From Hypomesus transpacificus (lineage: Eukaryota; Chordata; Actinopteri; Osmeriformes; Osmeridae), in the NCBI RefSeq assembly GCF_021917145.1, contig NC_061067.1:12379856-12443855 (forward strand): 64,000 bases of DNA. Reading direction: 5' to 3'. The notes under the pieces are model-generated. The model was given only the letters and a program-made list of their open reading frames with translations. It ran no database searches and was not told the origin of the DNA. Below, in pieces: positions 1 through 62,101 of this stretch. Within the stretch, counting starts at the first letter, position 1. The number at the start of each line of letters is the position of its first letter. Position numbers and translations under genes: made by a program.

Positions 1-3000
1 TTTTGACCAATCCAAATTCTGGCATATTATCATTTACTACTTTGGCAAGGATCATTGACTTTTGAGTTATGTATTTATTGCCATAAATCACAAGCCATTT
101 GACTGATACAGCATTGTTTATTTCATCATAACCTAGAAAGTCTCTTAATTTTCCACGTAAATATTGCAGATCTTTAACCTCAGATACAGGTCCCATCTCT
201 CTTTCATTTGAAAAGATTGGGTGCATTGAAGGGTCAGCATTTTGGCAGCCTTCATACATTTGGTTCTGATTAATCAAAGACTTGCTAATATTTTTAAAAT
301 TGAGCTTAGACGCCCATTGTTTAAAGAAACAATGTTTAGACTCAAACCGCATACACATATGTCTAATCATTGGACCCAGTGACTTAATCTGTGAGGGCAA
401 ATGTAGCATATAATGCTGCTTAGGCGTGATATTGTTCTCTGGAAAAAGTTCCTTCCATTTTTTCAAATGATTTTCAATTAGTGACTTCAATCGAGAAACT
501 GTTGCAATGGTAAGAACAGGTGCAAACACTATTTGCACAATCTCTATTAGCTCAATGATCAGATGCACATATGCATTGGTTTTCAAGCTTTCCAAAACAA
601 ATTGCAATATCCTTATCAGGACAAGCATTTGACCAGACGACTGTTTTAATTTACCATCATTTGACATTAACGTACTAACTGATATTGGGGATGGCCGATC
701 TCTAACATCCAGAGGGGAATAAGGGAAACCAAAAATAGCAGAATTCAGAGAGTCTAGATCTATCTGCCCTGACTGAACAAGATGATTCAAAACATGCTTT
801 ATTTCCAAAGGAGCTATTCCTTCCAGAATTACATGCATAATATCTTGCGGAGTCTGTTGAATAATATCAAAGGCAGGGATATCAACTAATTTGCTCCTGC
901 GATTGATCCCATATGTTGTTCTTAGGCTGTTGCGAAGCAAGTCTGTGTTTGCATTTTCTATTTCATTAGTTTGTCTGATATGCTTCTTTAAGGTCCTTTT
1001 GGTAAATGAATCCTCGTTGAAGTATGACTGCATGTCCTCAAAAGTACACTCACAGTGTCTGCATTTACTATAGGCAAAGCCCACCCCCTCTTTGAACCCT
1101 GCAAGTTCATGCTTCGCCAGAGTGTCGCCACAAATAGAGAACATGGCACCATAAACAGTTTTCTGTCCATTAATAGTTTGCATTTAAACACCATTGTACA
1201 ATGCATCCATATCTTCTTTGATTCTATTCAATATTGCATCTACACCACATTGACGGAGGTCTACTGACCTAGCCAGGGCAAGTAGCCTAATAGCAGCAAG
1301 TTTAGACCTGTATTTCAAATTTATGTTTGCTAGGGTGTAATACACCATTAAATAATTTGTTTTTTGATGCAAATGATCCTAGTGGATTACAGATCTTTAT
1401 TTCATCCGTGTATACAACAATCTGTAATGCATTTGGTTTCTCTGAAAATAAGGGATGTGATTTTAGAAGGGCACCATCGACAATGTCTATAAAAAAACCT
1501 TCTCTGCACCTCTGTGGTCCCTTGTCAATCATAGACCATATCCTTGGGTGTGATAAGAACTGTTCTAGACTTTTGACTAATGGTACATAATGAAACACTT
1601 TGTCTTTGATGAAGAAGTCTTTAGATCCTCCACGTTTCGTCCTGCATATGGTTCGAGCAATTGAAATTTATTCAGCATCCACAATACTGAATTGCTTCTT
1701 AATAACACTGTTCTGTCGAAATGTTGTTGCAACACTTGCAAAAGGGTCAATAAAATTGTCAAATATGCCCATTACTTCTTTTTGAAGGTGTCCTGATGAG
1801 CTTCCTGAATGATTCTTTAATACTTGCTCCATCTGCCCCCTGAGGTTGTCCAACAATGATGACTGATACTGCTGCACTCCAGCAACAATGTCATTCATGC
1901 CTTTCTGAAAATGAAAAAAAGATTTTGATACTTGTAATATACAGTTTTGCTTATGACCTATACATTAGCATTAAGGGATCAACAAAAGTGAAGTGAATAA
2001 AATGCTACAAAGATTGACCATCAACCATAGCTGGACCATTACAAAAAAGCTATGTGTTTTTGTGTACATAAGTAAATATATACTGTGCTATTAGTAAACA
2101 AGCATCTTACCTGTGAGAGACGATGTTTGGCCCGGGCATTTATGACAAAGGCAGTGGCCTGTGTTGTCAGATCCTAAAGCAGTACAAAATGAATTAAGTG
2201 TTGTTGATGTAATGTGATCTCTTTTGATTTGTAACTACAACAGAAGAAATGGTTGTGAAGGCTAACCCTGAAGTTTATCCATAAAACAAAGTACTCAATA
2301 AGAATGTAATGAGCAAAGAAGGATACTTTAACATTCAAAAGTGTTAAACACATAAATATTTATTGTACTTTCCTAAAAGTCATTTTCAGTAGACTTTCAC
2401 TAACAGTAACTTACTGGTTGTACTGCAGCTCCATCTTCTATTTGCCTTTCATCTGTATCAGGTGTCAGTTGTTGATTGGTGATACCAGAGATACCAACTT
2501 CCTCTGGAAGTTGATTGGATTGAACGTTGTCCTGTGTGTCACATATAAGAAACTGAATATATGACATTTCACCAGTAGATTTCTGTTAGATTTAGGTATG
2601 TTCATTCATTGTCACATAAATCGAACTGATAATTTTCACATAAACAAAGTTTTAGATGCGCAGCTATTGTTGTTATAGATTAAACACACATAATAAAGGG
2701 TCAACATGATTTTTTTAAGGTTCTCAAAATTGTAAATGACAATTGTATCTTCATATCGAAGTGTTTAATCAAAAAATCTGTCTGTGAATATCAACCTGTA
2801 TTTTAGTATGCCCTTCGACCGGTTAGCTCCTGCGATTCCCACACAACCCTAGAACAACGGCGCCGAAGACAAGCAATGCATGCTAGCTAACTTTACATAC
2901 TTGTTGCTGGTGTGTTCCTTGACCCTCCTCCTGTGGTTGTTGACCTGCATGGTTGCTATCGCCTGCTCTGGTGCTTTCAAGAAGGTGTTGAGAGTGTCTT

Positions 3001-3173
3001 CTTTTCACATGATGATAGAATGAGTTATACACTCGATATACCTCGGTACATCCGTCTATACCACAGAGCAACCTGAAATCAGGGCTACGGCTGTGCATTC
3101 GATTAATATGGCTCAATAACAGTTTTAGTGAAAAACTGAGGAAACCGAGGCAGATAGCGCAGCGCCAAAGCAT
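1..3173 (-). pseudogene. CACTA-like transposase, decayed, C-terminus beyond window
   Basis: I read four exons on the minus strand: 3173-2901, 2531-2415, 2173-2111 and 1904 to below 1, all with GT-AG borders and phase 0. Exon 1 encodes two C2H2-like fingers (CAICLGF...HINRMH and CGIDGCTEVY...HVKRRH). Exon 4 encodes the transposase core: residues around VYTDEIKICNPLGS, YYTLANINLKYRS, GFKEGVGFAYSKCRHC, DIMHVILEGIAPLEIKH, KQHYMLHLPSQ and HMCMRFESKHCFFKQW. I see three lesions: a TAA at 1668-1670 where the frame expects a sense codon, a one-base frameshift near 1345-1355, and a TAA near 1180 just before a long open stretch that runs to position 1. It probably catalysed cut-and-paste transposition and now looks inactive. 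Related proteins are common in fish and cnidarians. Confidence 0.75.
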
Positions 3174-3625
3174 CTTGAAGTAAACAAAATACTTTACAAA
3201 ACGAGCGAAACATTTCCTCTGCAATCCATGAAAAACATCAGCGGGAAAGTAACTGAAAGGATGTTTCTTATGTAATTGTATTCCATTATCTAGCAGCATA
3301 GGGGACATCTGTGAATTAAGTTTTATTTATTTTTATTTATAATAATATTCAATGGAAGTAACGTGGCGTGTGATGAATCTTTTAACATATTATACGAATT
3401 GTAAATAATGACAGTTAATTAACCACATTCTCCGTTTGTACAACGCTTCAAGTATTAAACTCACCCCCATTTTATGACATGGTACATTCCATGGTAACGC
3501 GGTAAAATTGTCAAGGCCGGGTGGTGGGTGGTCAGTTGCATTTGCAGCCATCACCGTACGTAAGCTTTTCTCTGTTGTGCAGTTATACTCTCGAGCCTTT
3601 GCAAATCGTCTGAACACTTTAAACT
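3174..3625. promoter_or_regulatory. Divergent intergenic region of the CACTA-like gene pair
   Basis: These 452 bases separate the two divergent start codons (ATG at 3173 on minus, ATG at 3626 on plus). They must hold the promoters of both transposon genes unless there are further upstream exons. I see no clear TATA box next to either start and no other gene. A bidirectional promoter is inference from geometry only. Confidence 0.45.
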
Positions 3626-6600
3626 ATGGATGAAGATGGAAGGGCTTATCCGGGTATGGATCCTACTACAATTTCAGTATTAAAAGGTAATTGTTTTTAT
3701 TTTATCTAACCTTATTGATTTGTTTTGGCCTGTTTTTTTTAACTAATCTAGCTCTAACAGCCAATTGTGAGGCTGGCTAACCAGTCATACCATGCTAATT
3801 TTAGAATCGTGTTAATTTTGGCTATAAGCTAACCACACGAAAAGCCATGTCTTGAAAATGTATTAATAGTAGTTACTTTATTGCTGTACCGGCACCTTAA
3901 CTTTAAGTTAGTCAGTTCGCTAACAAAGTAGTTAGAGCTACCTTCATTTTAGCTTTGTTTTAGCTTGGCCTAACGCTAGCTACTGTAGTTGGCGCCCTTT
4001 TGACTTGACGTTATCAGCAGGCCCAAACGTAGCTAACTAGCAAGCGCTGAATTCCAACGAAAACCCGCGGAATTAGGAATTACGTTTGGGCCTGGTTATC
4101 AGTCAACAGCCTTCTCATAGCCTATTTTGGGGGGTTAATGTCAGAATAGTTGGTGTTTCAAAAAACGATTCATGAACTTACGTGAAAGGGCAGGCAGACA
4201 GTAGCCTGGCTGCCAGCCCAACTTCTCCCCGCCCAAAAGAAATTTGTTCGGGAAATTGGGTCTGGAGGGTCTCGTATTGGGGACCAACTACAGAAAACCA
4301 GAATCTGGGCGAACCAATGAAATTGCCAGGGCGGGCTTTATACGATGATGGACAGATGATCAACAGTAACGTAATCACCCACGTCACAAAAGAGCGCTTA
4401 AGTTGAATTCGTTTTGAACAAACATGGCTACCGCTGGAGATCTGGGATGTTGTGATTCTGCCATCGAGTCTGTTTTAGAAGACATCGACAGCGCATTAGT
4501 TTTGAAAGAGGAATAGAGAGACGCAATCAAGGCATTTGTCGATGGAAAATATGTTATTGCCGTCCTTCCTACGGGATTCGGTAAAAGTTTAATTTATCAG
4601 CTGGCCCCGATGGTTGCGAAGAAGATGGGACACAATGGAAACCCAGTGGCCATTGTGGTTTCTCCTTTGTTTGCTCTCATGGAGGACCAAGTGAAAGAGG
4701 CGACCGAATTGGGAATCACGGCGATGCAACTCGGCGAGCACGATGAGGAAGCCCGGAATCCTGGCTGCTGAACAAGAAGTGGAGGGACATGCTAGGCTCC
4801 GATGTTTTTCAAGCCAACGTAATGGGTATCGTCGTGGATGAAGTTCATCTAACTTACAAATGGTAAGAGATAGTCTGAGTGAGTGTCGTGATATGAATCA
4901 AATGTTGTAAACATAGTACCATAGGTGTCAATGTACGTTCGCTAGACTTAGTACTATCATAACGTTAGTTTCATTGTAGCAAAATAACTAACAGTTCAAA
5001 CATTTTAATGTGCGCTTATATTTCTATCAGGGGTCAGGGTGCAAAAGGGCAGACGGCATTTCGCGAAAGCTTCGACAAGTTGGGAGAACTAAGATCCCTA
5101 GTTTAAGCTGGTAAGTCTGTACAAAACCATAGACTTCTTGCATGATTAGTCGATGTTTTATACACTTTATGTAATTAACCACTTTAATTGAAATCAGTTG
5201 CATAGTTACAAGAACCTAGTTACAGTCCACTTTAAACAGTTCTAATAACCACTCTCCTCTTTGTATGTACCCACACACCATACCGGTAGTCACTGTACCC
5301 CTTATAAGTCAGTACGGTCATTAAAAAGTAATAAATGACACTACTTCTCACTTCTTATTTTACTGTTACTTATTGGATTCTTATTGTTCTGCCATATATT
5401 CCAGGTACACCTGTGCTGGCATTTACTGCTTCTGCTGATCGGCAATCCATAGCCATGGTTATGAAACGGCTTCAGATGGACAATCCAACTGTTTTGGCTC
5501 GGAGCCCAAACAGACCAAACATCAGACTGGGTCTGATTAAAGTACCTGTTCATGCACTGGACTGCCTAGACTGGATTGTGAGGGATGTTAAAGAAAAGGG
5601 TATCTCCATATTGCCAGTTATTATCTACTGCAAAACTGTGAAGGCAGTTGGCAGAGTGTTCTGCCATTTGAAGGGGGAACTCGGTGAAGATTCCTGGGTT
5701 GACCAAGACCCTGAGAAAAAGACTGAAAACCTGCTGATAGGTATGTTCCACAGCCAGACACTCCCTCAGAATAAGAACTGAGTGCTGTCATCTCTGAGTG
5801 GACAGGGTAGCTGCCGAGTTGTCGTGGCAACTACTGCTCTTGGGATGGGCTTAAATTTTCCCAACGTAACACACATTGGGATGTATGGGTTACCAGACGA
5901 TGTGGAAGCCATGGTTCAGCAGGTCGGGAGGGCAGGCAGAGGTGGGTTGCAGGCACATGCGATTGTTTATGCTGTCAAACAGCATACAAAGCTAGACCCA
6001 GCAGTTAAGACAGTACTTGAGACTGGAGTCAATAGTTGTCTGCGGAAAGCTTTGTACTGCCATTTCGAGGAAAACACCACATCTGTTGATCCAGGACATC
6101 TGTGCTGCACCCACTGCCATTCTGTTTGTTCTTGTGAACCTGAAGGTTGTGGGGAGCCAATCCCTAAATATGAACACTTTCAAGGGGAGGTCACATCACC
6201 TGACAAACACCGAATGATCACACCTGAGGACAAACTTGTAATCAGGGACCTGTTACAAACCTACAGGAGTAGTTTACTTCGGGACCATACAAACATGCAA
6301 CTTTACACAGTCGACACAGCCTGCACTGGTTTTGGAGATGAACTCATTGATGCGGTTTTAGAAGAGTGTACACAGATATTTGATCTGGACTTCATTATCC
6401 ATAATCTCCCTATATTCAAACTGGAACATGCAAAAGAAATACTAAGAATTATGCATGAGGTATTTGATGACATCGAACTGAGTCAAACTAATTTGTTGGA
6501 TGACAGTGTTGTTCAGGATGACTGTGTTCAGGTTGACATGTACTACACTGGTTACTTTGATGAAGAGGATGAGAATGATGAGATACAATCATCACCAAGT

Positions 6601-9600
6601 AGCTCAGTATCAGGCTTGTCAATGTTGAAGATCTCAGATTAGCTTCAAATTAAGCCTCTAACTTCTAGCTTCAGGGTCCTGTTGTTGAGCAAAAGCCTCG
6701 TATTTTTTATCCCTGTTATAGTAACATTTTGAATAAACTGTACATTGTTTATACTTTTATACTGGTGGTTGTTTTTGAATTTACAAAGAAACAATAATAC
6801 ATAAGTCAAGAAATGTTTTTAATATCTCCACATAATAGGTAATTTTTTAACATACTTTGAACATTTTACCAATAAGAAAAGACACAAAAAAATGTTGACA
6901 TTCAAGAATGTCGACACAAAAGAAGAAAAAAAAAGATTTAGAATGTCACTTATGAAAGCATTATTTACAAATGTAATGCCATCAACATCACCATTTCACA
7001 TTGACATAATTATTTAAAGAGGGACATTTCTCCAGTCCATAACTTTGGACTTCATCCACTGCCATAATTCACGGTAATTCAGCTTTACCAAGAGGTTTTT
7101 CTGGAACTTTGGGAACGCGTGAAACTGCCTGCCTGGTTGAGTTTTAAAAAGTTGAGTCTCCCGGAAAACGTTGATCAGGGTTAAAATGTCCTCCTGTTCT
7201 TGGGCTACATGGTGAATGCCAGTCGGCCGTGTCCGCTTCAGCTCTGTGTCTGTTTTCTCCATCATTTCCTTGAGGATTCCAATGGACTTGCTTATTCTGG
7301 CTGCTGACATTTCTGACAGGTTTGGTCCCAAGCCTCTCATTAAAGACTTAAAAAAATTGTTCAGGTGTTCTAGATGGAGGTCAAGAGGAATATTTACCCC
7401 TTTGCACCCCCAACCATTCCAAAACCGGTTCCATATCACACTGTGTGCCATGCGTGGGGACAGTGTGACGTTAACCTGCAGTGTTAGTAGGAAGGTGCTG
7501 TAGGCATATTGGCTGTGTCCATACGCTTTATAGAAAAGCAGGGCAACTTTATAAAGTCGCATTAGCCTGTCACCATCCCCTTCTCTTACTGCGTCCTGAA
7601 TGTTTAGCAAGAAGAAGCCAAAGCCAAGTCTAGCTTCTGTGTGTTCTTTTTTGTGATCTTGGTTTGCTGTACTCGGATGTTCGAGAGAAGAGTCTAAGGG
7701 AGCCACAAGATTGTGTTTCTTTTTCTCATGTGTTTCCCTTGCCTTGACGTATGTATACACAATACCACACCCGTCTGCACAACACGGATATTGCTGCTTT
7801 TGCTGTGTCGAAGCCTGCCTTTGACTTTCTGCGTCTGTGACGCCTGTCATCATGACAAAGGTGTCCACAACCAGTCCAACCTTCTCATGTAGCCAGCTCC
7901 TCCTCACTTGTGGCAATCCGTCCTTGACATCTACTGGGACAAACCCATCTGGAATTTCTGTTAGCACACAGAACAAAATGTTTAACTTCTCACCACCAGA
8001 AGTGTAAATGCAGATTTTAGTCAAATAATATTGGGTACAAACTTTTATGAAAGTGAATTACAATTTTAACATTTAACTATAACAGTAGTAACATATAGAT
8101 CCATGTATTTATGTGATAAATGCTAGTTCTCAACTATGAATGTGATGCCAAGTGCCAATTTACCTGTGACATCCTGCAACCCAAAGTGCTCCATTGCAGC
8201 AGCTAGGAAGAGTGCAGTTGTGTCCTTGCGCAAAAATTCCTTATAGGCATTGTAAGCTGCATGGGGACCTTGTTTGGCATTGCTGCACCTATATAACAGA
8301 AATATGTAGTTTAGAGAATGTCTGACATAGTATTCTCAGTGTTAGTCTGTCCATCGCTCACAGTTATTTGCATTAATTAATTTAGCAGACACCTTCATCC
8401 AAAGTAATGTATTAGGTCAATTATATAACAAGGGTAATGAATAAGGGCATTGAACCCACAACTTTTTTGCATGCCGAACATGTCCTTAACCTGTACGCTA
8501 CAACTACTTTACTCACACACGCACGCTACCGTCGGTATGTTTAAGTGTGATTATGAATGTGTGAATGACAGGCAAACATTGTAAAGCGCTTGGAGTGCCG
8601 CTAAGGTTGAAAAGTGCTATATAAATGCAGTCCATTTACACACACACGCCCGCATGCACACGTGTTAAAAACTGTCTTTCACACAGGGACAGTAAGAGTA
8701 CTGTGCGTCCAGTGTTCTCTTTAGCACTGCCGAAAGTAAACAACTAAACAACTATCTTGACATAGCCTCAACTGCCCACATGCAGTTATAGAAAACATGT
8801 AATAAGTTGAAAACATACCATACCAGTGCATGAGTAGAAATAATGCCCCGGAGAACAGCAGGGCTGCGTTCATAATAGCAGGACTGTGTTCCCCATCCCA
8901 TAACAACCCAATTCATGAATTATCCAAACTGGATATCTGTGAAACTACTGTTAAAAGCATGGTAAACAAAAAGTACTTTTAATAATTGTAGTTAACAACA
9001 ATAATGTTTAGACTGTAAAGACAAGCTTAATAACTGTAATAATTGTACAGCATGTATTCATGGTATTGCAGATAGCAGACGTTGTACCTCAACTTCGTCA
9101 TGTTAGCAAGAAGTGTGCCATGGTCTTTTGAGGATGCACCATCATAGAAAATCCGATGATAGATCTTAATAAACATTGAAGACTGGTGATTAACAAAGGA
9201 TAAACATAACTTGACACACAAGCACTTGAAGTAATCTATCAAAAAAATCATCTAAGGTAGTGGTGTAATACTTTCATTTTGTTACTACTCAACATTCTTC
9301 TATAGTTTGTTACTCACTTCAAAGAGGTTTCTGATGGCATGCCAATCCTCAAACTTAAAGATGAGACCTTCCAGTCGGTCTTCCTTTGTAGCACCATCTG
9401 AGAGGGCCCACTGTATGTTTCTGCAGTTCCCCTCAGTCAGCCGGTCACCTCCTACTAAAACACTTGACAACCCGTCCGGTCCCTTTGGCACATACCTAAA
9501 TGTATTACACACAAACGGTGGAATTATACATTTAAATAAAGCCCTTCTCCTGCCAAAGACTGACAGTGGAGCCAGATTATATTCTTACTCTTTCTGAAGG

Positions 9601-12600
9601 TGGCGAAGTGTGTCTACCAAATCTGCTGTTTTGTTCTCGTTTTTGAAGAGCAGTCCCAGAGTGTACTTAGGGAATAAAATAATAAGATGACATTGCAGTA
9701 ATGTTTGAGTTCAAAGTACGTGTATTAACTTTTGTTGTTGTTGCAGATTTAACTCATTACTTACATCGGTGGAGCACTTAGTCATGTCCTCTGTATATTG
9801 ATGTGGCATGTGGTGAACCACTAATTTCTTGAAGGGTTTAAAAACAGCCAGGTACTGGGTAACGATGCGGCTCCCAAGAACAATGAACTCACGTCGTATA
9901 TAGTCCTGGGTTTCTAGTCCGGGGAGTGAGTTGCAAAGGTCGTACTGAACAATGTCATGGTGTGGTTTGTCACTGCTAAGGTGATATGTTGAGATTCTAT
10001 CTTGGACTGCAATATGATGAATCCAGTGTATGGATTTGTTGCTGTGGAGGGTGGACTGATGATGTGCACGCACGAAAAAGTCAAAATTATCAAATATTAT
10101 GGAATATGTTGGTGGAGGAGTGGGGTGTGCGATTGGAAAAGCCGAGGAGCTCAAGCCCAGCTCTGCTGCTTCAGAGTCACTTAAGCTGCTGAAAGGCAGC
10201 ATAGCTATTTCAGAGTCATTTATGCTTTGAGCCATTTCATCTGCTGGGGGAAAAAAGGTAATAACAATTACAAGACTTATTATTATTATTCAAAAGATAG
10301 ACACATAACATTCAAGGTAACATAGCATGTGATTTGTTTGTTGTGTTTCTATATCAGTCATATGGCATCTCACCTGACAAGTGAAGCTCTTCCATGCTCT
10401 CACGAACAGTGTTAAGTGGCCCCTTCGGATCACTTGTGCTTTGGTCTTCGCTGGTGTCCACTCTCTGACCACCATCAATGTTCCCTTCCACTTCAGAGTT
10501 GAGGGAAACCTCATTCTGGACCTTTAACATGTTTAAAGAACCCGCACATAGGAGTGCCAACTCTTTCTGCTTCTCTACATAACATTTGTGAGTAGTTGTT
10601 AAGGCCATTTTGCTCAGCCTTTCAAACACTGCTTTTTTCGCCCCACCATAATGTAGTATACTACATAGGTAGTATGCAAAGGCTGACAGGCGTGCCTCTC
10701 TCCCTCTCAAAGCAATGGAAGCTGCTGCACAAGTTGCAGTTAGAGAGTGGTTGGTGACAGTGAAAATGGAGAAAAGGAATGGTGAAATACATTTTAGGTC
10801 TGCCTCTATGCCTGAAAATGATAAGGCTTTCAGATGATCCGGAGATGCCTTCCACAGGATGAAACCATTTTTGGGGTTACAGATTTCTTTGCATTCGTTG
10901 CTTATTAGCTCCAGGATGTGCTCCTTTACTTCCTCAAGTAGGTGTTTATGCTTCAATATTAACTTTGTTGCCGTTTTCCAGTTTTTTTGTTTAATGGTGT
11001 TCACTATTGAGGCTTCTTCTGAATGAAGTACCTTAGCACGAGTCTGTGATGGGTAATGGATGACTACCTGAAATATAAGATAATGTATCAGTGTGAATAT
11101 TTACAGTATAGCCTAATAAGTATAATGTACGTTGACAATACATAGGAATATACAGACAGTTAAACATGGGGACCCCAGATGCAATTGCAGAGCTAGTTTA
11201 GTGGAATACTGCCCAACCCCCAAAGAGGTGCAGTGCGCAGAGATGGGGGTTGGGTAACATACTACTCCATTACAAAATGAAGTTCCTACATCAGGTGCAA
11301 GTTTATCTTGGTAACATTTGCTCACAGTACACCTGGCCAGACTCAAATTCGAGCTTGCTTCCAGAATACACAGTAGGCTACCATATCGGTAAATATGACT
11401 AAGCTGGTTTAATCATAGGTAAATAACACTGTAATGAGGAGTGTGGGAATGCACGTATGTTCATCAACATTGGACAATAAACACGACTCACTATTCACCT
11501 AGACAAAAATGGCAATCGAGGTTATTGTCATAGTCATATCATAAGAAGTAGACATTTATCAACAACAAGCTTACCTCTGTAATGCTTTTTCACGTTTTTG
11601 TACCGATTGGAGTTGACGGATTGGGGCAGAACTTCTTCAGAGCCCTGGGCGTCTTGGAGGGAGTAGGCTCCCGGTCTCTTTTTTCTGAGGCCTCAGATGA
11701 ACACGCTTCTTCAGCCTGGTCTCCTTCGTCGTCTGTCCATTTTTTAAACACGGGCATGTCGCGTTCCAACCGTGTTACTACGTTCTGACAGGACCGACAA
11801 ATGCGATACGATTTGTCTGATCTTTTGTGGAGTTGTACTCCTAAACGGAGAACTTGTTCGGATATGCATTGCCCTTTATTGTTTCTCTCAAAAAGGTTGA
11901 CTGTGTGAACAAGTGCTCCCCGTACCCTTAAATTAATTTTACAACACCGGCAAAAATCGTTGGTATTCATTCTTCAAGCATACTTCTAGTCTGCTTGCAG
12001 TTTAGTTCTGTTGACAACAACTATGCGGCGCTTAACATACGTCACATACTCTGTTGCTCTGATTGGTTGTAGATCTATCCAATTGAGCGAAGAGGCATTT
12101 GTTTTCCAGGCACGCCCTGTAGTCAAAGCCCAATGGAGAGTTCTCAGACTCATATTCTGACTAGAATTATGAGTATGACAACGTCAGGCTAGGCAGACAG
12201 TAGGCCTTTACTAGATGCGTGAGTTTCAAAACGGACTCTAGCTACCTTTAGTTAGCTTCCGTTACCTAGCAACCAAGCATAATACTCGTAGCAATGCTAC
12301 TACCTGCTAGTGTTACTTGTTAGCCTCCTATTTGTACATTTTGAAGTCATAGTATAGCGTTTGTCATATAGTTTTTGTCTATGGAAAATAGTCAATTGCA
12401 ATGTTCTAAATCGCACATGTGCGACGTGCTGTGAGACCCGCATTCAAACGACCACATTTGTGCGACGCTACTTCTTAACGGCTTGATAATTAGTTTTATG
12501 TTTATGTTATCAGATTATATATTTACAGTGTGGTTGAATGTGTTTTCCAGCTGCTAGTATAAGCGCAGACATGCTTCCTAGTCTCTCCAAGGAGGACTTG

Positions 12601-15600
12601 CGTGATCTCTTTCCGGGGCCTGAGCAGTTCTTCAGAAGGAAAGACATTTGGAGAATTTCACATGATGAAAATGAGGTAATGTTCAATTTAAACATTGTGG
12701 AGTAGCGTTAGATAATCATACTGTGATATCAATCTGATATCAACGTAGCATTTCCTGGCCCTGTTGTGGTTCAATGCTCTTCACTTGAAATGATAATGAA
12801 ATACATGTTTGCCCTTTTTTAGGGTGAAGAGTCAGGTCAGCTTAGACCAGGCACCTCCTCTGGAACCTGTGATTCCAGCCCTGTTCCCTCAACCCCATTG
12901 TCCTCCTCATCCTCCTCCACCCCTCTCCTCTCTTCTTACCCAAGAAACCAACATGGTAACAGCAGAACCGTACAACTTGTAAGCCCACAGTATGTTGTAT
13001 ACACAGACACCGAGCTGGAGCAGTCAAGAAGTGTATTTTTTGAGAAACAGCGGGCTGGACAAGAAGGAAACTATACACTCTCCAAAGATCTTCGTTGTCG
13101 CCTAATAAGGAATACGGTAACAAGCATGATTGCCATCAAGAGAGCTGCAAGGGATGACTTCCAGTATCCATGCATCCGTGAACTATCTGTAATGGCTAAG
13201 CGTCTCATAGAGTACTACCCAATGTTGCAGGACAAATCTCCAGCCGGTGGAGCTGAGTGGGTATGTCACTACTCAGTTAATTCAGATCAGTGCTTGTATG
13301 GCTTAATTTCCACATCTATTTTTATTAATGTGTGTTGTGTTTTTGTCAGGAATCTGTGAAAAAGCAGCTTTTGAAGAGGGTCCAGAATGTGACAACCCCC
13401 AAAAAGAAGCAGGGAGCGACTCCTTTGAGAAAGAGGCGTTGGGCCCTTAGCTTTGAGAGCAGCAGTCAGGAAACATTTACTGATGACACTGATGAGTCCA
13501 CTGCTTCAACTTTGATCTTGGAAAGACCAAGATGCAGTTCCCCGGAGGCTGAACAGGTGGATGGTAAGAACACATATAAGATTGTGTTTTGGTATCAATG
13601 CAACGTTTACTGTTAACAATGGAGAATACCATCTCTTTAAATGAGTTCATCTAACAATAATGTCATACCTCTTAAACCCTATGGGGTCTGGGAGCTGTGG
13701 CTAACCTTAAAGAGAGAGAGAGCTTCAAAACTAATCTTGGTCTTTTTGGTTAAACCTCATATTATCTATTGTCAGTAACAGTTACAATGTTAGTAAGTTA
13801 AATGGTCTCCAAATGAAGTAGTTTTATTGTTATCAAAAGTGAAAGAGAAAAACCTGGATATGGACTGATGTTGCATTAAAGCCTTGTCCTTAAGAAACCT
13901 TTAAAACAGACCAAACTAATACCAGACATGAAAATCCCTCACCTTTCTGCGAAAATCGCCGTTTTGAAATCAAAATAAGTGACCTACGTGAATCGTGTAG
14001 ATTCGATGAGAAATTGTTTTTGGGGGGGGGGGTTGGTATTCATATTCAGTGAACTGCGAACAGGTGCGCGTGTCAGAAGGGAGCGCGAGTGCATGGAAAT
14101 ATTAACGCAAAGGTCCTTGCGTCACCAGTGCAGACTAGCCTGACGTTGTCATACTCATAATTCTAGTCAGAATATGAGTCTGAGAACTCTCCGTTGGGCT
14201 TTGACTACAGGGCGTGTTTCAAACGAGCCTGAAAAACAAATGCCTCTTCGCTCAATTGGATAGATCTACAACCAATCAGAGCAACAGAGTATGTGACGTA
14301 TGTTAAGCACCGCATAGTTGTTGTCAACAGAACTAAACTACAAGCAGACTTGAAGTATGCTTGAAGAATGAATACAAACGATTTTTGCCGGTGTTGTAAA
14401 ATTAATTTAAGGGTAGGGAGAGTACTTGTTCACACGGTCAACCTTTTTGAGCGAAACAATAAAGGGCAATGCATATACGAAGTTCTCCGTTTAGGATTAC
14501 AACTCCATCGGGGCCAGCTGATAAATTAAACGTTTACCGAATCCCGTAGGAAGGACGGCAAAAACATATTTTCCATCGACAAATGCCTTGATTGCGTCTC
14601 TCTGCTCCTCTTTCAAAATTAATGCGCTGTCGATGTCTTCTAAAACAGACTCGATGGCAGAATCACAACATCCCAGATCTCCAGCGGTAGCCATGTTTGT
14701 TCAAAACAAATTCAACTTAAGCGCTCTTTTGTGACGTGGGTGATTACGTTACTGTTGATCATCTGTCCATCATCGTATAAAGCCCGCCCTGGCAATTTCA
14801 TTGGTTCGCCCAGATTCTGGTTTTCTGTAGTTGGTCCCCAATACGAGACCCTCCAGACCCAATTTCCCGAACAAATTTCTTTTGGGCGGGGAGAAGTTGG
14901 GCTGGCAGCCAGGCTAAGTGCAGACCACCATCAGACGCTGAAAGCACTCCTGGCCTCGGCGATTTACTTGACTGAATTTGGTGAATGTTTCAATCATTTT
15001 TATATTTTCGGTTATATTTAAGTTTAGTTACCCAGGAGCTCTGTTGACATAGACTTAGCTAACACGGAGAAGAAGAGAACGCAACGTTAGCCAGCTAGCT
15101 AAAGCTCTAGTGGAAAATTCCAAATGAACGTATGCAGCCTTTGATGCCGCTTACACACAACAGTGACACTGACAGAAAAGCTAATTTGAGACAATATAAA
15201 GATGGATAGCCAGGCTAAGAAACGTAAACGTAATTACCTTCAGTAGACAACGGTTTACCAATTGGACAAACGGCTATGTTTGTTTCAAGCTCCAAAAACT
15301 ATTTTTCGCTCAAATCAGGCAAAAAAAATCGCTCGCACGCAATGCGCGCTCGCATTAACCATGGAAGTCCCTAACTAGCATCACATCAGATGGAATTTGC
15401 ATGCATTAGCAAGGCGCTCAGTGTGGTGGCGTATACGGGACCGGTTCTTGTGGGCCGGTCTGGATCAAAGTCCAGCGCCTATTTTTACTTCCAGTCCGTC
15501 CCTGCCGTTCTATCAATAAGCATACCTACCAACCTGTACGCAATTTGTGTAGCAGATATGCATTTTGACTCCAAAATACGATGGTACTTGTATTGGCTGT

Positions 15601-19459: not shown

Positions 19460-19570
19460 CTGACTGTTACAGTTGGGGCAGTCAGGATAGACAGAGGTGA
19501 GAGGTGGGGCAGATAGGAGAGACAGAGGTGAGAGAGGTGGGGCAGTCAGGAGAGACAGTTGGGGCAGCGA
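19460..19570 (+). repeat. Minisatellite derived from the twsg1 stop-codon region
   Basis: Degenerate units of about 30-35 bp (GGGGCAGTCAGGATAGACAGAGGTGAGAGGT-like) repeat about three times. The unit on the gene side contains the final codons and stop of twsg1, so the array seems to have grown from the coding end into the 3' UTR. Confidence 0.6.
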
Positions 19571-22500
19571 ACACTCCTGCTCCCGTAGTCGACACACTCT
19601 GGCCCGATGCACTGACAGCAGGCGTTATGGAACCAACGGTACTTGGAGCCGCCCATGGCCTCACAGTACTGCTTACACTCGCGGATGGATACACACTCGT
19701 CGAAGTACACCACTGTGCACATGTTGCCTACAAGGGAAAAATACAGTACCAGGTCAGGAACTACACACATAACACTACACAAAAGAAAATAGACTGAGCG
19801 TAAGCTCGTTTGGCTCTCAGGGAGTATACAAACACCTGTATTTATGCACACACACATATACACACTTGTATAAATGTATACACTCAGACACATACACACA
19901 GCGGCAGTCCCAGAGATCCCACGGCCAGTTTGGGTACCGTCCCTTTAAGACAATCAGTGACCTGGTCCACTAAAGGTAAGCCGACATGGCTAAGAGGAGG
20001 GAATGGACAGCCTCAGTTCAGCTGTGACACAAGTGTCACCAGCTGATCACGTAGGCTAAAAGCTGACCCGGGGTGGAGTAAGGTTCCCTTGAAGTCCCTC
20101 TAGTTTTGTTTTTATTTGTAAATTAAAACGCACGTAAGTGCTTTAATGCTCTGTTTGGTCGTCAGTCTCCTGAGTTGTGGCCTGGGTCTCTCTGTAGCTT
20201 GCCACAACTCCTGCACGGACACGTATCTTCACACTTTCACGTGAATGTGTATATACACACACAATCCTACACGTATGTACACACCAGTGGCAGCTGCTGG
20301 TCTTTCAAATAGGGGAAGCTCATTTTCGGCCTACATCATAAACATTTTTCCATGTATTTTGCTAGTTCACTGGCTAGTTCACCCCTACGACACTAGCCTA
20401 GCCTACTGTATGAATGAATGAATGAATGAACGATCTAACGAAACACTATTAAACTCAAAGGAAATGTGGGAATTAGGTTAAATTGAAACAAGGAATGTGG
20501 TGTATAATGTATGATACTAAGGTCCATTTCGCCAAGCAAATACTAAGAAATAGGTTTCAGCAGTTGGCCTTTCCACAACACTTGCAAAAATCCGCGATTG
20601 GACTGAGCTCGAATAGCTTCGGTGACTTTTTATGGTACAAAATCGCTGTCAATCAAAAGGAGATGCAGTCTTTCGACAGATCCTTCAATCATCATGCGGA
20701 AGCCCAGCATCCAGGCCAGCCCACTCCTCCATTTACCCACAGAGACGCTGAGCGCCCAGTGCGGGACATGATCGCAGCATTTATCCAATGACCGTATAGT
20801 TTCGAAGCACTGAAAAAAACTGTTCAAAGCAGCCACATTGAAGTCCATGGAAGCTGAGCTTCAACAGGGAAATGCAGTGTGGCGCTACGGGAATGTATGA
20901 GAAGGAAATCAGTCAGTCAACCTGCTAATACAGTGCCCTCCAAAAGTATTGGAACAGTGAGGCCAATTCCTTTATTTTTGCTGTAGACTGAAAACATTTG
21001 GGCTTGACATCAAACGATGAATGTGAAACCAGAGATCAACGTTTCAGCTTTTATTTCCAGGTATTTACATCAGGATCTGATGCACAAATTAGAAAATATC
21101 ACCTTTTTGTTCGAACCCACCCATTTGTCACGTGAGCAAAAGTATTGGAACATATGACTGACAGGTGTGTTTTGTTGCCCAGGTGTGTCCTATTACATAC
21201 ATTATTCAATCAATAAATACCACTGAATGTCTACACTCAGGTTCAGATTGGGTAAGATAGGTTTTGTCTATGCAGACTGTATTCAGAGGTGAAAACAACA
21301 TGAAAACCGGAGCGCTGTCTTTGGGTGAAAAACAAGCAATTGTGAGTCTTAGAGAAGATGGAAAATCAATCAGAGCCATTGCAGAAACATTGGCCATAGC
21401 CAGTACAACCATTTGGAATGTCCTGAAAAAGAAGAAAACTACTGGTGTACTAAGTAACAGACGTCGAACAGGTAGACCAAGGAAAACATCAGCAGTTGAT
21501 GACAGAAACATTGTGAGAGCTGTAAAGAAAGACCCTAAAACAACTGTTAGTGAGATCAGCAACAACCTCCAGATGGCAGGAGTGAAGGTATCACTATCTA
21601 CTGTTCGCAGAAGACTTCATGAACAAAAGTACAAGGGCTACACCAGAAGATGCAAACCACTCATTAGCAAGAAGAATAGGAAGGCCAGGCTGGAATTTGC
21701 CAAAAAGTACAGAGATGAACCTCAAAAATTCTGGGACAAAGTTTTATGGACTGATGAGACAAAGATTAACTTTTACCAAAGTGATGGAAAGGCTAAAGTT
21801 TGGAGAAAGAAAGGAACTGCTCATGATCCCAAACACACAAGCTCATCTGTGAAACACGGTGGAGGTAATGTCATGGCTTGGGCTTGCATGGCTTCTTCTA
21901 GGACGGGCTCATTAATCTTCATTGAGGATGTAACACATGATGGCAGCAGCAAAATGAACTCGGAAGTCTACAGAAACATTTTGTCTGCCAATTTAAGGAA
22001 AGATGCAACCAAACTGATTGGCAGAGCCTTCATCATGCAGCAAGATAACGACCCAAAACACACTGCCAAAACAACAAAGGAGTTCATCAGGGGCAAGAAA
22101 TGGAAGGTATTAGACTGGCCAAGTCAATCTCCAGACTTAAACCCTATAGAGCATGCATTTTACCTGCTTAAGAGGAGACTGAAGGGAGGAACCCCACAAA
22201 ACAAACAACAACTGAAAGAGGCTGCAGTGAAAGCCTGGGAAAGCATCAAAAAGGAAGAATGCAAAAGTTTGGTGACGTCAATGGGTCACAGACTTGCTGC
22301 AGTTATTGAAAGCAAAGGATTTGCAACTAAATATTAAGTCTTATTCACTTAAATATGTTTTAAGTATATCTGTTCCAATACTTTTGCTCACATGACAAAT
22401 GGGTGGATTCAAACAAAATGTGATATTTTCTTAGTTGTGCATCAGATCCTGATGTAAATACCTGGAAATAAAAGCTGAAACGTTGATCTCTGGTCTCACG

Positions 22501-56900: not shown

Positions 56901-59900
56901 AAAAATAAATACGACCTCACGTGATGTCAATCGCGCTTGCACACTGCCTCCGAAACTTTCGTTCGTCAAAAAAAGTTTGGATCGGGTTCAGTTTTCTGCG
57001 TTTTTCGCATCCGTAGCCAGCATTTTGAGAGGTTATTTGGCAATTCAGAGCCACCGTACGAACAAAAATATTCAGAATGGCGTCTGACAAGTTGATACAC
57101 TTGTTAGCGACAGTCCATAAACTGCAGCCAGATTTGGTCACAGGTACGGTGTTCATTTTAGGACATCCTCAGATCTCAGACTCAAGTGTCAGACTCAAAC
57201 AAAAAGGCTTCAAGTCTCAGACGAAACGGCTTCAGTCTCAGAAAAACCTCTGTCATTCTCAGACAAAACGTTCTCAAACCAAACGCCATCATTCTCAGAC
57301 AAAACGCTCTCAAACTAAACGCCATAATTCTCAGACAAAACGCTCTCAAACTAAAAGGCGTCATTCTCAGAAAAAACGCTCTCAAACTAAACAGCGTCAT
57401 TCTCAGACAAAACGCTCTCAAACTAAACTTTGTCAGAATTTTTTCGTCAAAGCTAGCTAGATGAGGGAGCTGTTGACTAGATTTCTGAATTAGCTTAAGT
57501 ACCAGCCAAAGTGAATACCATGGTGTTGTAACTGTTAAAGTTCGGTAAAGTTGGCATGACATTCACAGATTCAAACTTCCGGGTAGTTAACTGGTACAGC
57601 AAGAACACTTACTTTTGATTTAATACTAAATAGTTGTTTACTGTAAGTTATTTGATTGTACTGGCGGAACAGTTGTTCAGATCGTCGCACGACGTTGATG
57701 ACGTTTATGATTCTTTAGCAAAGTTTGTTTGTATTGTCCATGGCAACCAGAGGACTACACATGGGTTTACTTTGAGTGAACTAGCTTACAGAAAACAACT
57801 ATTTCGTATGATATCAAAAGTTTTCTTGCTGTACCAGTTAACAGAAACAACACCATGGTATTCACTTTATAAGCTGCTACTTTAGCTAATTCAGAAATCT
57901 AGTCAACAGCTCCTTCATCTAGCTAGCTTTGACAAAAGTTTAGTTTGAGAGCGTTTTGACTGAGAATGATGGCGTTTAGTTTGAGAGCGTTTTGACTGAG
58001 AATGATGGCGTTTGGTTTGAGAGCGTTTTGTCTGAGAATGACGCCGTTCAGTTTGAGAGCGTTTTGTCTGAGAATGATGGCGTTTGGTTCGAGAGCGTTT
58101 TGTCTGAGAATGACGCCGTTTAGTTTGAGAGCGTTTTGTCTGAGAATGACAGAGGTTTTTCTGAGAATGAAGCTGTTTCGCCTGAGTCTGACGACTTTTG
58201 GTCTTGAGACTTGACACCTTTTTGTTTGAGTCTGACACTTGAGTCTGAGATCTGAGGATGTCCTAAAATGAACACCGTACAGAGGTCTCCCTCACAATCT
58301 TCCCTACAGTGCTTTTGCCCAAATGAAAACTGCTGGCGATGGTGGTGAATGATAGCCTGGCTCTGCCCTCCTTCGTACTTCCGCTCAATTTGGATTTTGC
58401 TTCTGTACTAGGTCTGGGAGCTCGGCTCTGAAGTCGGTTTCCAGAAACAATTTTTTTGTAGGTCCACTCAGCGAACAGAGGGAGTGGCTGAGAACGATGA
58501 CGTTAATGTCGTGCACTTGTTTGAGTAGTTCAGTAATGGCGGCGGAGAAAGATGCGAGCGAAACTATTCTGCAGTTGTGGGAATGCTGCCGAATATAGAC
58601 CTTTTTTGATGAACATTCTAGAATTTTCATTCTTCAAGTTTGGCCCTTGAAAGCTTCCGGTTTCAGACGCGCAAATGATTGTTTTGATGGAAGTCAGCTA
58701 GTTTAGTAAGTGAGCAAGTTACGGTGGCAAACATTTTTTTTAAACATTGTCAATTGTTGCTGTGTTTGGCTGTTCGTCGAGATTGGGGAAGAACAAGTTG
58801 TCAACAAGTTTAAATTTCCCATAAAAACGGGACTACGAGATGACTGGGTTTCTGCTTAGCGTGTTGATCTTTCGACGTTGTTGAAAGTAGCTAGTAATAT
58901 TGGTGGAAATACCGTTAGAATAGCGTTGATTTTGGTAGTTTTTTCAACGTTGTTTCAATTGTAATATTGGTGGAAATACCGTTAGAATCGCGTTGGTTTT
59001 TTTATCGTTGTTTCAATATTAAATAAGGGTGCAAAATGATGATGGGTCAACATAATGACGTTGGTTCAATGAAATTAGCGTTGAAAATGGAATGTTGATT
59101 CAGCGTAGTTTCAATTAAGTTTGCTATCTGGGTTAGTGCTTTAAAAAGGTGGTTTGGGGTGCCATAACTTGTCATGGAAGGGAATTTCCAATTATGCCTA
59201 GCATCAGTGGCGATGTGTCCTGGCTTAGGTTACTGAAACGAATTTGCGCAACAGGCCATGGATCCACCTGAACAATAAATATACTTCAGTAGAGATAACG
59301 GTTGTGGATCTGACACTGCATACGTAGTCCTAGGCTATTGCTAACTTTCATATCCACCTTTTGTTTAACCGTCGCCCATACACTGGGTTCAAAAATGACT
59401 GGTGGGAGATGTAAAAACAGCAGATCATATTGAACATTTATCGGTGCATTTATTAATTACTACAATTTCACAGCAGTTATTCAACAACTAACCAGCAGAT
59501 ACAGCCCGCTGCACACCTCCCCGACCGTTGCATTTAGTATGCAGCGATCAGCTGGTCTAAGTATTTTTAAGCCGTCTCTATCTTAATATGTACATTATTT
59601 GTTGACTCCCATTAAAAAAAATAGTTGTAGGCATTAGACCTTTAGGCTCCAATAACCTCTTTACTGACAGTGAACGCACTTTACCAAATAGTATTTGGTA
59701 GGCTAATGTAGCTACTATTTGAAATAGTTAGTGGTAGACATCGGGATAGATTAGCTCTAGCTCTACCTTACGTAGGCTATCAATTTTAGATCAGCCTAAA
59801 ATAAATTATAGCCTAAAATAAATAACGTTCTGATCCAGTGGGTCGGTTATGGACACTATTCGATGTACCTCTGCTATTCACAGCCAGTTAATTGATGGTA

Positions 59901-62101
59901 ATATGCGCTAGTCATGTTAACGCGATGGTAAAGTAGCTAGCAACTAATGTATGAGATGCGCTAACCGGATGTAGTTCAGGGCCTTGCGTTCTAAACTGGT
60001 CTGTTATTGTTTACGTTTCAAAAAAGGTCTATAGGTCAAAGCCGGAGCAAGAACATTCCTTGCTGAGTTTTGTTGGTGGCCATGATGTTGTGGCCCTCCT
60101 TCCCACGGGGTTAGGCAAAGTTAGATTTTCCAGCTACGGCAGCTAGCTCCGTTACAGTAGTGGTGAAGGAGTTGGCTAAGGCGAACGCTCGCGATTGGTT
60201 ATGGCAAATCCGAGTGGCTCTGGGTGGATCCAATAGTTTTAAACTTCAACAGAGGACCCGCCTTCAAGGAAGTTAACGTTTGTCAATGGAGAGATCCCAG
60301 ACCCTCTGTACAAATGAAATGTACGAGGGTCTGGTTAAGACCAGGCTAGGTGAATGAGTCCCTAGTGCTCAGATACCTAAAATGATACATATAGCCTATT
60401 ATTATAGCACTCAAAATAATTGTGTTGTATTGAATGTTTGTTTCAAAAGTGCGTGTGTGTGTCCTATGTTCTAGCAAATCATCAAACTGATCCACTGACA
60501 TTCGGAGGTACATTTTAAATTTCTCTGGATAATTTCCTTGATAAGGAGATGAAACTCTTCTTCCTCTCTGCGCAACTTCAGGATTGGATGGACCCAATAT
60601 TTCCTATTTCTCCTAATTTTTCTCTTTTTAATGAGAGGGCAACAAAACCATCCTCACTGCTTGACAAATCCATTTAGTATTTTTTCTTTTTTTGTTTTTC
60701 TCGCAAACGTTTAATAAATACGCATCGGACTCAGTGTGCAAGGTGTGCGTGACGAATTTTAGGCTGACGAATACGAAAAAAACGCAAACAATTTTTTTTG
60801 ACTCAGTGTGCAATGGCCTTAAGAGTCCATTTCCCTGCAAGTGTGGTCAGCACCCTCAGATTAGCCATTTGGACTAACATCCTTCACCACCTCTTGACCT
60901 ATCTCTTTTCCTGCAAGATGTAAGTTTGTCACAGGATGTTTCTTATCAATGAACACAGAAGCCTTAAAAATCAAATCATACTAAAACCAAATAAATTTAA
61001 CATACAGCCTAAAATTGTATTACAGTAGAACACACTAGACTACACTGGCATGTACGATTGTGAAAAAAAATTATATTTTTTTTGTTAAGGAGCGATATCC
61101 GGCATGTTACTCTGTCCTGTTTTCTCCCTCATTCTAAACTGTAAACAACGCCAGTCTCCCTTCTCTGCAGAACCCCCCCCCCCCCCCCGGTAAACACCAT
61201 ACTATGCCCCCGGGCCGCCGGCAAACTTCACCCTACCACCTTAACTAACACATTTTCTGCGGAAAACCCTGAATAGAAATACACAACTGCTAAAATAGTT
61301 TCCTGTCTCAGGTTGATCGAGCCCCAGGACCTGGACAAGGCTGTGGACCTCTATCAGAAAGCTGCTTCTGTGTTTGAGGTACACTGAGGACACCATGGCT
61401 GTCACATGGTGAAACATGGACTTCACACTGCTTCTTTACATGCTATGCTACAGTGCTGTGGTCCAACTGATAAATGGATAGATGGGTTGATAGACATGGC
61501 TAGCTGTGTGTAGCTGTGTGACTAGCTGTGTGTCTGCAGAATGAGGACCGCCTGCGCCAGGCAGTGGAGATGCTGGGGAAGGCATCACGCCTGCTGGTCC
61601 GACAGCAAAAGTATGTCTGTCTCCTGTTAATCTGTCATCACAACCTCTCAACTTGTTCCTGTAATACTGCTGTAATAATGCTGATGGTGTGTGTCCGTCT
61701 CAGGTTGGATGAAGCAGCAGTCTCTATCCAGAAAGAGAAGAGCATGTACAGAGAGATAGAGAACTACCCCACCTGCTTCAAGGTACAGACACAGCGCTCC
61801 TGTCCAAACCCTGATTAGGTTCAGAGGACGGATCACTCAGTGGGTGTGTGAAGTTGTCCAATGTCTGCTTCTCTCTTCTCCCTCCCACTCCAATTTTTTT
61901 TTTCTGCCTTTTGGTCACTTTCTCTTCCAGAAAACCATTGCGCAAGTGCTAGTTCATCTCCACAGGAATGACTTTGTAGCAGCAGACAAGTGTGTGAGAG
62001 AGAGCTACAGGTAATCATGTCTACACCCACCCACTACAAAGGCACTGTGATGCTGTTTTTTGGACCTCTACACCCTGTAGTAAGAGACAACAATGCACCC
62101 A

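What the first reader, a model, noticed from the sequence alone, without database searches (positions are those of the whole stretch)
4193..12200. Near-complete helicase-plus-DUF6589 transposon with 9-bp target duplication
Two exact 9-bp repeats and a TAGCCTG/CAGGCTA terminus bound a 7990-bp unit with exactly two convergent genes: a RecQ-like helicase with a zinc-binding C-terminus and an eight-exon DUF6589-type transposase. A helicase-bearing Academ lineage (AcademH) has, as I recall, been described. This copy fits and shows full structure, exon map and duplication length. The transposase has a single premature stop in 996 codons, so the family was recently active in this lineage.
Basis: partly seen in the sequence, partly recalled or inferred. 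Interest (0 to 1): 0.85.

Follow-up and report, generated by a model that had tools for sequence, protein, structure and literature searches.

The report
Helicase-carrying AcademH-type transposon in smelt
The stretch is one inactivated full-length copy of a cut-and-paste DNA transposon that carries its own helicase, in a smelt genome that also holds over a thousand ends of short relatives of it; the kind of element is already known, but this family shows its insertion rules very clearly and may have jumped between smelts and herrings.

Summary
Confirmed. Window 4202-12191 is a 7,990-bp DNA transposon with TAGCCTG/CAGGCTA ends, an exact 9-bp duplication, a RecQ-type helicase gene and, converging on it, an eight-exon DUF6589 gene. 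The host is a smelt, nearest Osmerus. What I could read about AcademH (a helicase, 9-10 bp duplications) fits; Repbase and the original paper could not be consulted. Corrections: the helicase has three in-frame stops and a frameshifting deletion, besides one stop in the DUF6589 gene, so this copy is dead. The coding part is single-copy at high identity, but 1,240 left and 1,580 right ends of the family lie in the 437-Mb genome; those sampled are mostly internally deleted copies from four founder deletions. Of 60 sampled left ends, 45 have an exact 9-bp duplication, one an exact 10-bp one, 6 differ by one base, 2 by two, 6 show none. Insertion sites show a palindromic preference. A second, divergent family in the genome has both genes, TAGCCTGG ends and a 9-bp duplication. 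The window holds two more insertions (14136-14916, 58353-60348). The helicase is 90% identical to one of the herring Alosa pseudoharengus, which suggests, without DNA-level proof, horizontal transfer. A new, well-resolved member of a known kind.

The parts
4193..4201 (.). left 9-bp target-site duplication GGCAGACAG
   Evidence: sequence; identical to 12192-12200
4202..12191 (.). full-length AcademH-type transposon, 7,990 bp, inactivated
   Evidence: termini and duplication; the same termini recur genome-wide
4202..4208 (+). left terminus TAGCCTG (7-bp inverted repeat)
12185..12191 (-). right terminus CAGGCTA
4424..6642 (+). RecQ-type helicase gene, three exons (4424-4862, 5031-5110, 5405-6642), cysteine-rich C-terminus; broken by stops at 4514, 5104 and 5779 and a frameshifting deletion near 4747
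   Evidence: Pfam DEAD 3.3e-11 and Helicase_C 4.9e-16; 90% identical to Alosa P0025
7014..11970 (-). DUF6589 gene (presumed transposase), eight exons: 11970-11575, 11067-10374, 10243-9765, 9665-9589, 9495-9318, 9182-9088, 8288-8164, 7957-7014; one premature stop at 11592-11590
   Evidence: introns GT-AG; Pfam DUF6589 4.1e-33; homologues; stop position
12192..12200 (.). right 9-bp target-site duplication
14136..14916 (-). 781-bp internally deleted derivative of the same family (element 1-412 joined to 7627-7990), with its own 9-bp duplication AGTGCAGAC at 14127-14135 and 14917-14925
58353..60348 (+). 1,996-bp derivative of the second AcademH-type family (C374), 9-bp duplication GGTGAATGA at 58344-58352 and 60349-60357

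Best explanation
A cut-and-paste DNA transposon of the AcademH kind in a smelt (Osmerus or a close relative). Shown: 7-bp inverted termini, a target duplication of 9 bp (once 10), two convergent genes, a coding region that is single-copy at high identity, more than a thousand ends of other copies, the sampled ones mostly internally deleted in four founder classes, and a two-fold symmetric target preference. Inferred: the DUF6589 protein is a DDE/D-type transposase that binds the element's ends, cuts it out and joins it to target DNA with strand transfers 9 bp apart; repair fills the gaps and makes the duplication. The helicase probably helps by unwinding or remodelling the ends or the gapped product. 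Internal deletions, probably from aborted gap repair, made short copies that the proteins mobilised in trans; these multiplied while coding copies were lost or, like this one, inactivated.
For: Ends and duplication. Gene models and Pfam. 1,240 left ends (24-mer, up to 1 mismatch) and 1,580 right ends (30-mer, up to 2 mismatches), reversed-pattern controls 0. Sample of 60 left ends out of the 100 places that one search lists: 45 exact 9-bp, 1 exact 10-bp, 6 with one mismatch at 9 bp, 2 with two, 6 without; control, left flank of another copy against the right side, 0 of 40 exact. Self-nested insertion in L083: CTCGTATTG occurs once in the uninterrupted element stretch and is doubled around the insertion. 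Derivative classes with shared breakpoints 412|7627, 467|7620, 223|7843, 394|7847. Palindromic target preference, seen separately in the two copy sets. Second family in the same genome with both genes converging, TAGCCTGG ends and an exact 9-bp duplication. Library passage: AcademH makes 9 or 10 bp duplications, AcademX 3 or 4 (PMC10045372).
Against: No sequence comparison with Repbase AcademH was possible; the 2020 paper is not held. DUF6589 as the catalytic transposase is not shown: the structure model was too poor to use (pLDDT 47.6) and no solved relative was found. 6 of 60 sampled left ends showed no duplication within the roughly 1.7 kb fetched; of 39 top-scoring short-copy loci, 5 lack a recognisable right end and 3 with both ends show no duplication. 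No excision or polymorphism data. No helicase match at the C25 locus.
Confidence: 0.9

Rival explanations
1. A KolobokH transposon: a Kolobok element that carries a RecQ helicase.
For: RecQ-type helicase next to a transposase-like gene.
Against: [quoted passage not shown] the same passage notes a rhodophyte Kolobok with a RecQ helicase on the complementary strand); here the duplications are 9 bp of varied sequence.
Confidence: 0.02
2. An AcademX-type (nuclease-bearing) Academ element, or a new superfamily that merely shares a helicase with AcademH.
For: Membership could not be tested against Repbase; DUF6589 is labelled unknown function in Pfam and no held paper mentions it.
Against: AcademX makes 3-4 bp duplications. 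Here, scored for any length, 30 of 43 end pairings (some of the 43 are false pairings of nested copies) have an exact duplication, each of 9 bp; in the sample of 60 the longest exact match is 9 bp in 45, 10 bp in 1, 4 bp in 2, none in 12. Among the open frames of the element I recognised only these two genes; Pfam was run on those two only.
Confidence: 0.06
3. A composite of unrelated repeats whose flanking 9-mers match by chance, or a host gene pair between chance repeats.
For: Helicases of this kind are often annotated as ordinary genes (for example 'putative ATP-dependent DNA helicase Q1').
Against: The same termini occur over a thousand times and the sampled copies carry independent duplications; the same two genes recur convergently in a diverged family.
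Confidence: 0.01
4. The helicase and DUF6589 genes of this locus were co-opted by the host and are kept for a cellular role.
For: Single coding copy at high identity in the genome.
Against: Helicase carries three stops and a frameshifting deletion and the DUF6589 gene one stop; intact termini and duplication look like a plain insertion.
Confidence: 0.01

Closest known systems
AcademH lineage of the Academ superfamily (Kojima 2020, Mob DNA 11:15; known here only through citing papers)
   Same: Encodes a helicase; target duplications of 9 and, once, 10 bp, as reported; its title places it in animals and fungi.
   Different: Over a thousand ends of short derivatives here, whereas one paper calls fungal AcademH low-copy (PMC10799480). 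Whether the 2020 paper describes derivatives, target preference or smelt families is not known to me.
AcademX
   Same: Same superfamily by name; presumed common transposase (recalled).
   Different: Associated with a nuclease instead of a helicase and 3-4 bp duplications.
KolobokH
   Same: Transposon with a RecQ helicase.
DUF6589 and RecQ-like proteins of Alosa, Engraulis, Siphateles, Branchiostoma and others
   Same: Homologous proteins, listed as uncharacterized or as helicase Q1/RecQ-like.
   Different: Names shown do not call them transposon proteins; Alosa is the closest named species outside Osmerus over the whole helicase query (90%).

Membership tests
AcademH | encodes a helicase in addition to the transposase | tested here: met
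   Pfam DEAD and Helicase_C in the window's pieces and in the Alosa homologue, whose nearest solved structures are RecQ, WRN and BLM
AcademH | 9 or 10 bp target-site duplication | tested here: met
   sample of 60: 45 exact at 9 bp, 1 at 10 bp; 28 of 39 top-scoring short-copy loci exact at 9 bp; all three window insertions; second family 9 bp
AcademH | Academ-type transposase | not testable with these tools
   DUF6589 found; that DUF6589 is the Academ transposase is recalled; no Academ reference sequence was available
AcademH | very short terminal inverted repeats (recalled) | tested here: met
   7 bp in the window family, 8 bp in the C374 family; the next bases differ
AcademX | 3 or 4 bp target-site duplication | tested here: not met
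   9 bp is the rule
KolobokH | TTAA 4-bp duplication | tested here: not met
   definition
Helitron | no target-site duplication, Rep/helicase fusion (recalled) | tested here: not met
   9-bp duplication; Pfam finds no Rep domain in the Alosa homologue of the helicase or in the window's pieces

The most novel reading that the evidence does not exclude
The window family was exchanged horizontally between the smelt and alosine-herring lineages (directly or from a shared third source) long after they split, the same pair of fish groups for which transfer of an antifreeze gene has been published; in the smelt it spawned more than a thousand short copies. Evidence: helicase 90% identical to Alosa pseudoharengus over the whole query, while other named non-Osmerus fish with at least half the query covered reach 66% at most; the Alosa DUF6589 model reads into what is intron 6 here, and the first 11 residues of that read-through (YNVCYLQYHEY) are identical in the smelt intron. 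A conserved host gene in this window, twisted gastrulation, is 79% identical to the one clupeiform I recognised among 120 of 238 hits, Denticeps. Weaker or against: the DUF6589 protein is 82% identical over 59%, and a short Pleuronectes piece is 88% identical over 9%, so more lineages may be involved.
Probability: 0.45. Interest if true: 0.55.

Novelty: new member of a known kind. Interest (0 to 1): 0.4.

Why it matters
Why a cut-and-paste transposon needs a helicase is, as far as I know, open. This family supplies what an experiment needs: exact termini, a 9-bp stagger, a palindromic target preference, short substrates (down to 69 and 89 bp, one copy each, which may instead be later deletions) and a second family in the same genome for comparison. 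It also identifies a repeat family with over a thousand copies' ends in a smelt genome, and the close Alosa match offers a clean test of horizontal transfer between two fish groups already linked by a transferred antifreeze gene.

Tried and rejected
Structure: AlphaFold2 on a DUF6589 homologue (P0003, 19-row alignment) gave pLDDT 47.6 and was not searched further; a profile search of solved structures gave two hits at E 1.8 and 1.9. Viral contigs: 34 pattern matches, none a relative of the helicase. Shared subterminal motifs between the two families: only the terminus itself, one 8-mer against a shuffle mean of 0.15 and maximum 3, so no transposase-binding repeats are claimed. C1 locus: both genes but no convincing ends. 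Idea that this element carried the antifreeze gene: dropped as unsupported; passages of PMC3499448 report no evidence for a transposon vector at that gene in smelt. A first count that scored only 9-bp matches had put L112 among the copies without duplication; scored for any length it has an exact 10-bp one. The tree used 24 of the 120 helicases listed, picked by hand, plus three smelt sequences; the Osmerus eperlanus fragment was left out. The divergence groups were hand-picked by size and breakpoint from the 37 copies. Left unanswered because the machine stayed busy: copy number of the C374 family's ends, recurrence of the 69-bp form, genome search with the 58353-60348 element.
Full report
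WHAT IS THERE. The 9-bp repeats, termini and length are as reported: GGCAGACAG at 4193-4201 and 12192-12200 around a 7,990-bp unit with TAGCCTG and CAGGCTA ends. Beyond the seventh base the two ends differ. A spliced model of the minus-strand gene gives eight exons with GT-AG introns from 11970 to 7014 and 996 codons, final stop included, with one premature stop at 11592. Pfam assigns DUF6589 at E 4.1e-33 over residues 474-928. The plus-strand gene, 4424-6642, is a RecQ-type helicase: DEAD 3.3e-11 and Helicase_C 4.9e-16 in its two pieces. It contains stops at 4514, 5104 and 5779 and lacks the equivalent of residues 109-120 of its Alosa homologue with a change of frame. So the copy is structurally complete and genetically dead.

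HOST. The window lies in a 437-Mb genome of 376 contigs. The twisted gastrulation gene in the window (pieces between about 19550 and 23600, minus strand) is 98% identical over its whole query length to Osmerus mordax, the next listed proteins being 87-88%, so the host is a smelt of that genus or very near it.

OTHER COPIES. The whole element as a query found one full-length copy, itself, and short copies; the tool scored only 40 of 1,867 candidates. The helicase stretch 4700-6645, the 3' exon stretch and the stretch 9700-11070 each match only themselves at high identity, with distant relatives at 67-74%. The 24-base left end occurs 1,240 times with up to one mismatch and the 30-base right end 1,580 times with up to two; the reversed patterns, used as controls, occur 0 times.

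DUPLICATIONS. Of the 39 short-copy loci fetched from the top of the first search, 34 have both ends; 28 of these show an exact 9-bp duplication, 3 differ by one base and 3 show none. Because those were picked by similarity, I also took 60 of the 100 left-end places listed, on contigs C1-C5 and without looking at the right side; I left out places already in the first set and most closely spaced neighbours, and the C6 places could not be fetched. The result: 45 exact at 9 bp, 1 (L112) exact at 10 bp, 6 with one mismatch at 9 bp, 2 with two, 6 without. Scored for any length from 4 to 15, the longest exact match is 9 bp in 45, 10 bp in 1, 4 bp in 2 and none in 12. Pairing the left flank of another copy with the right sides gave 0 of 40 exact and 1 of 40 with one mismatch. 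In L083 a copy sits inside another copy: the uninterrupted element stretch reads CTCGTATTG once, the interrupted one carries it on both sides of the insertion, so the repeat arises on insertion.

DERIVATIVES. 37 sampled copies were aligned to the full element. By my reading 34 of them are its two ends joined at one of four shared breakpoints, some with further gaps or insertions: 412|7627 (about 781 bp), 467|7620 (about 850-880), 223|7843 (about 382) and 394|7847 (about 558). Shared breakpoints mean amplification from single founders. Mean pairwise differences in hand-picked sets are 2.0% (10 copies, the window's own 14136-14916 included), 3.2% (3), 5.3% (6) and 2.2% (3). As a rough scale, a paper passage gives 0.15 synonymous substitutions for Osmerus eperlanus against Hypomesus nipponensis and about 24 million years for the split of these smelts (PMC12083275); 2% would then be some 3 million years. 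Two copies of only 69 and 89 bp keep both ends, one with an exact duplication and one with one mismatch; later internal deletion cannot be excluded for single copies.

TARGET PREFERENCE. Over 73 non-nested sites, measured outward from the 9-bp duplication, G at -3 mirrors C at +3 (42 and 43 of 73), and T at -15 mirrors A at +15 (45 and 45 of 73), with weaker symmetric positions at 4, 14 and 16. The strongest positions score 0.49 and 0.34 bits against a shuffle maximum of 0.126 in 200 trials. After collapsing similar sites the pattern is present both in the similarity-picked set (26) and in the sample (44). The symmetry axis is the centre of the duplication, as expected if two like subunits act 9 bp apart.

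SECOND FAMILY. At contig C374, 884286-891565, a 7,280-bp unit has TAGCCTGG at both ends, an exact 9-bp duplication GCTATGCTT, and both genes converging; aligned pieces match the window element at 65-77% in DNA. A protein search of the genome with a Branchiostoma DUF6589 homologue matched only this locus, the window, a decayed locus on C1 where both genes also converge, and 5' fragments on C25. The window itself contains a 1,996-bp derivative of this second family at 58353-60348 with duplication GGTGAATGA.

MECHANISM. Shown: termini, 9-bp stagger, target symmetry, and a pattern of many defective copies with a single coding copy. Inferred: trans-mobilisation, and DUF6589 as the transposase. In an alignment of the window protein with 24 homologues, D566, D599 and H601 (window residue numbers) are invariant in 25 of 25 rows and D415 is kept in 21 of 22; a C2H2-like pattern lies at 740-763 and an LHLEH motif near 874-879. 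I suggest D415, D566 and the LHLEH glutamate as a DDE triad; this is a guess that the failed structure model could not test. The helicase's part is unknown; one author relates the different duplication lengths of AcademH and AcademX to helicase and nuclease (PMC10045372 passage).

KNOWN OR NEW. The original AcademH paper is not in the library. Seven held papers carry the word; of these I saw passages of three, PMC10799480, PMC10045372 and PMC12210899, and one of them gives the 9-10 bp rule. Of other papers I saw passages of PMC9587614, PMC12083275 and PMC3499448. No held paper mentions DUF6589, and searches combining Academ with MITE and target terms or with Osmerus listed none that, by title and abstract start, concerns this family in smelt. 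The element is therefore a new member of a known kind; its derivatives and target symmetry may or may not have been described in the 2020 paper.

HORIZONTAL TRANSFER. In a tree of 27 helicases the window protein joins Alosa pseudoharengus and two metagenome proteins with full support (100/100), path length 0.098 to Alosa, while the next named fish is at 0.79. In the search list the named fish after Osmerus eperlanus (97% over 33%) and Alosa (90% over 100%) that cover at least half the query reach 66% at most (Leuciscus, 54% covered); unnamed metagenome proteins reach 82-88%, and a Pleuronectes piece 88% over only 9%. The Alosa records lie on contigs of 40 and 60 Mb, so contamination is unlikely. 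The Alosa DUF6589 protein is 82% identical over 59% of the query; its model continues past the sixth exon into sequence whose first 11 residues are identical to the smelt intron read in frame, with later pieces matching in other frames, though the tblastn scores for those later pieces are weak (E 0.21 and 4.1). Against: no Alosa DNA was available, no substitution-rate test was run, and the only clupeiform comparison for a host gene is one protein of Denticeps (79%).

Noticed in passing
58353-60348: A further AcademH-type insertion (second family) with a 9-bp duplication; about 1.4 kb between its positions 244 and 1686 has no counterpart in the C374 element, perhaps a nested repeat.
   Followed up: partly
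20928-22594: A Tc1-like transposon with an open transposase frame of at least 342 codons (HTH_Tnp_Tc3_2, DDE_3) and inverted repeats next to TA, within the span of the twisted gastrulation gene; it may be recent.
   Followed up: partly
19549-23600: Host twisted gastrulation gene (TWSG1), minus strand, 98% to Osmerus mordax.
   Followed up: yes
1-3326: Remains of another transposon-like gene set on the minus strand (weak DUF4218 and C2H2 matches below Pfam's cut-offs).
   Followed up: no
4020-4092: Short inverted repeat (GGCCCAAACGT...ACGTTTGGGCC) just upstream of the element.
   Followed up: no
54268-55092: Reverse transcriptase fragment (RVT_1, E 1e-24), probably of a non-LTR retrotransposon.
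   Followed up: no
57029-58262: Repetitive frames ([10 protein letters not shown]...) on both strands, a tandem-repeat-like stretch next to the second-family insertion.
   Followed up: no
L025, L083, L087: Three self-insertions at the same position (base 78/79) of the element's left end, L087 in reverse orientation, and L072 one base off: a possible self-targeting hot spot.
   Followed up: partly
L112: The one sampled copy with an exact 10-bp duplication, of the usual 781-bp length.
   Followed up: no
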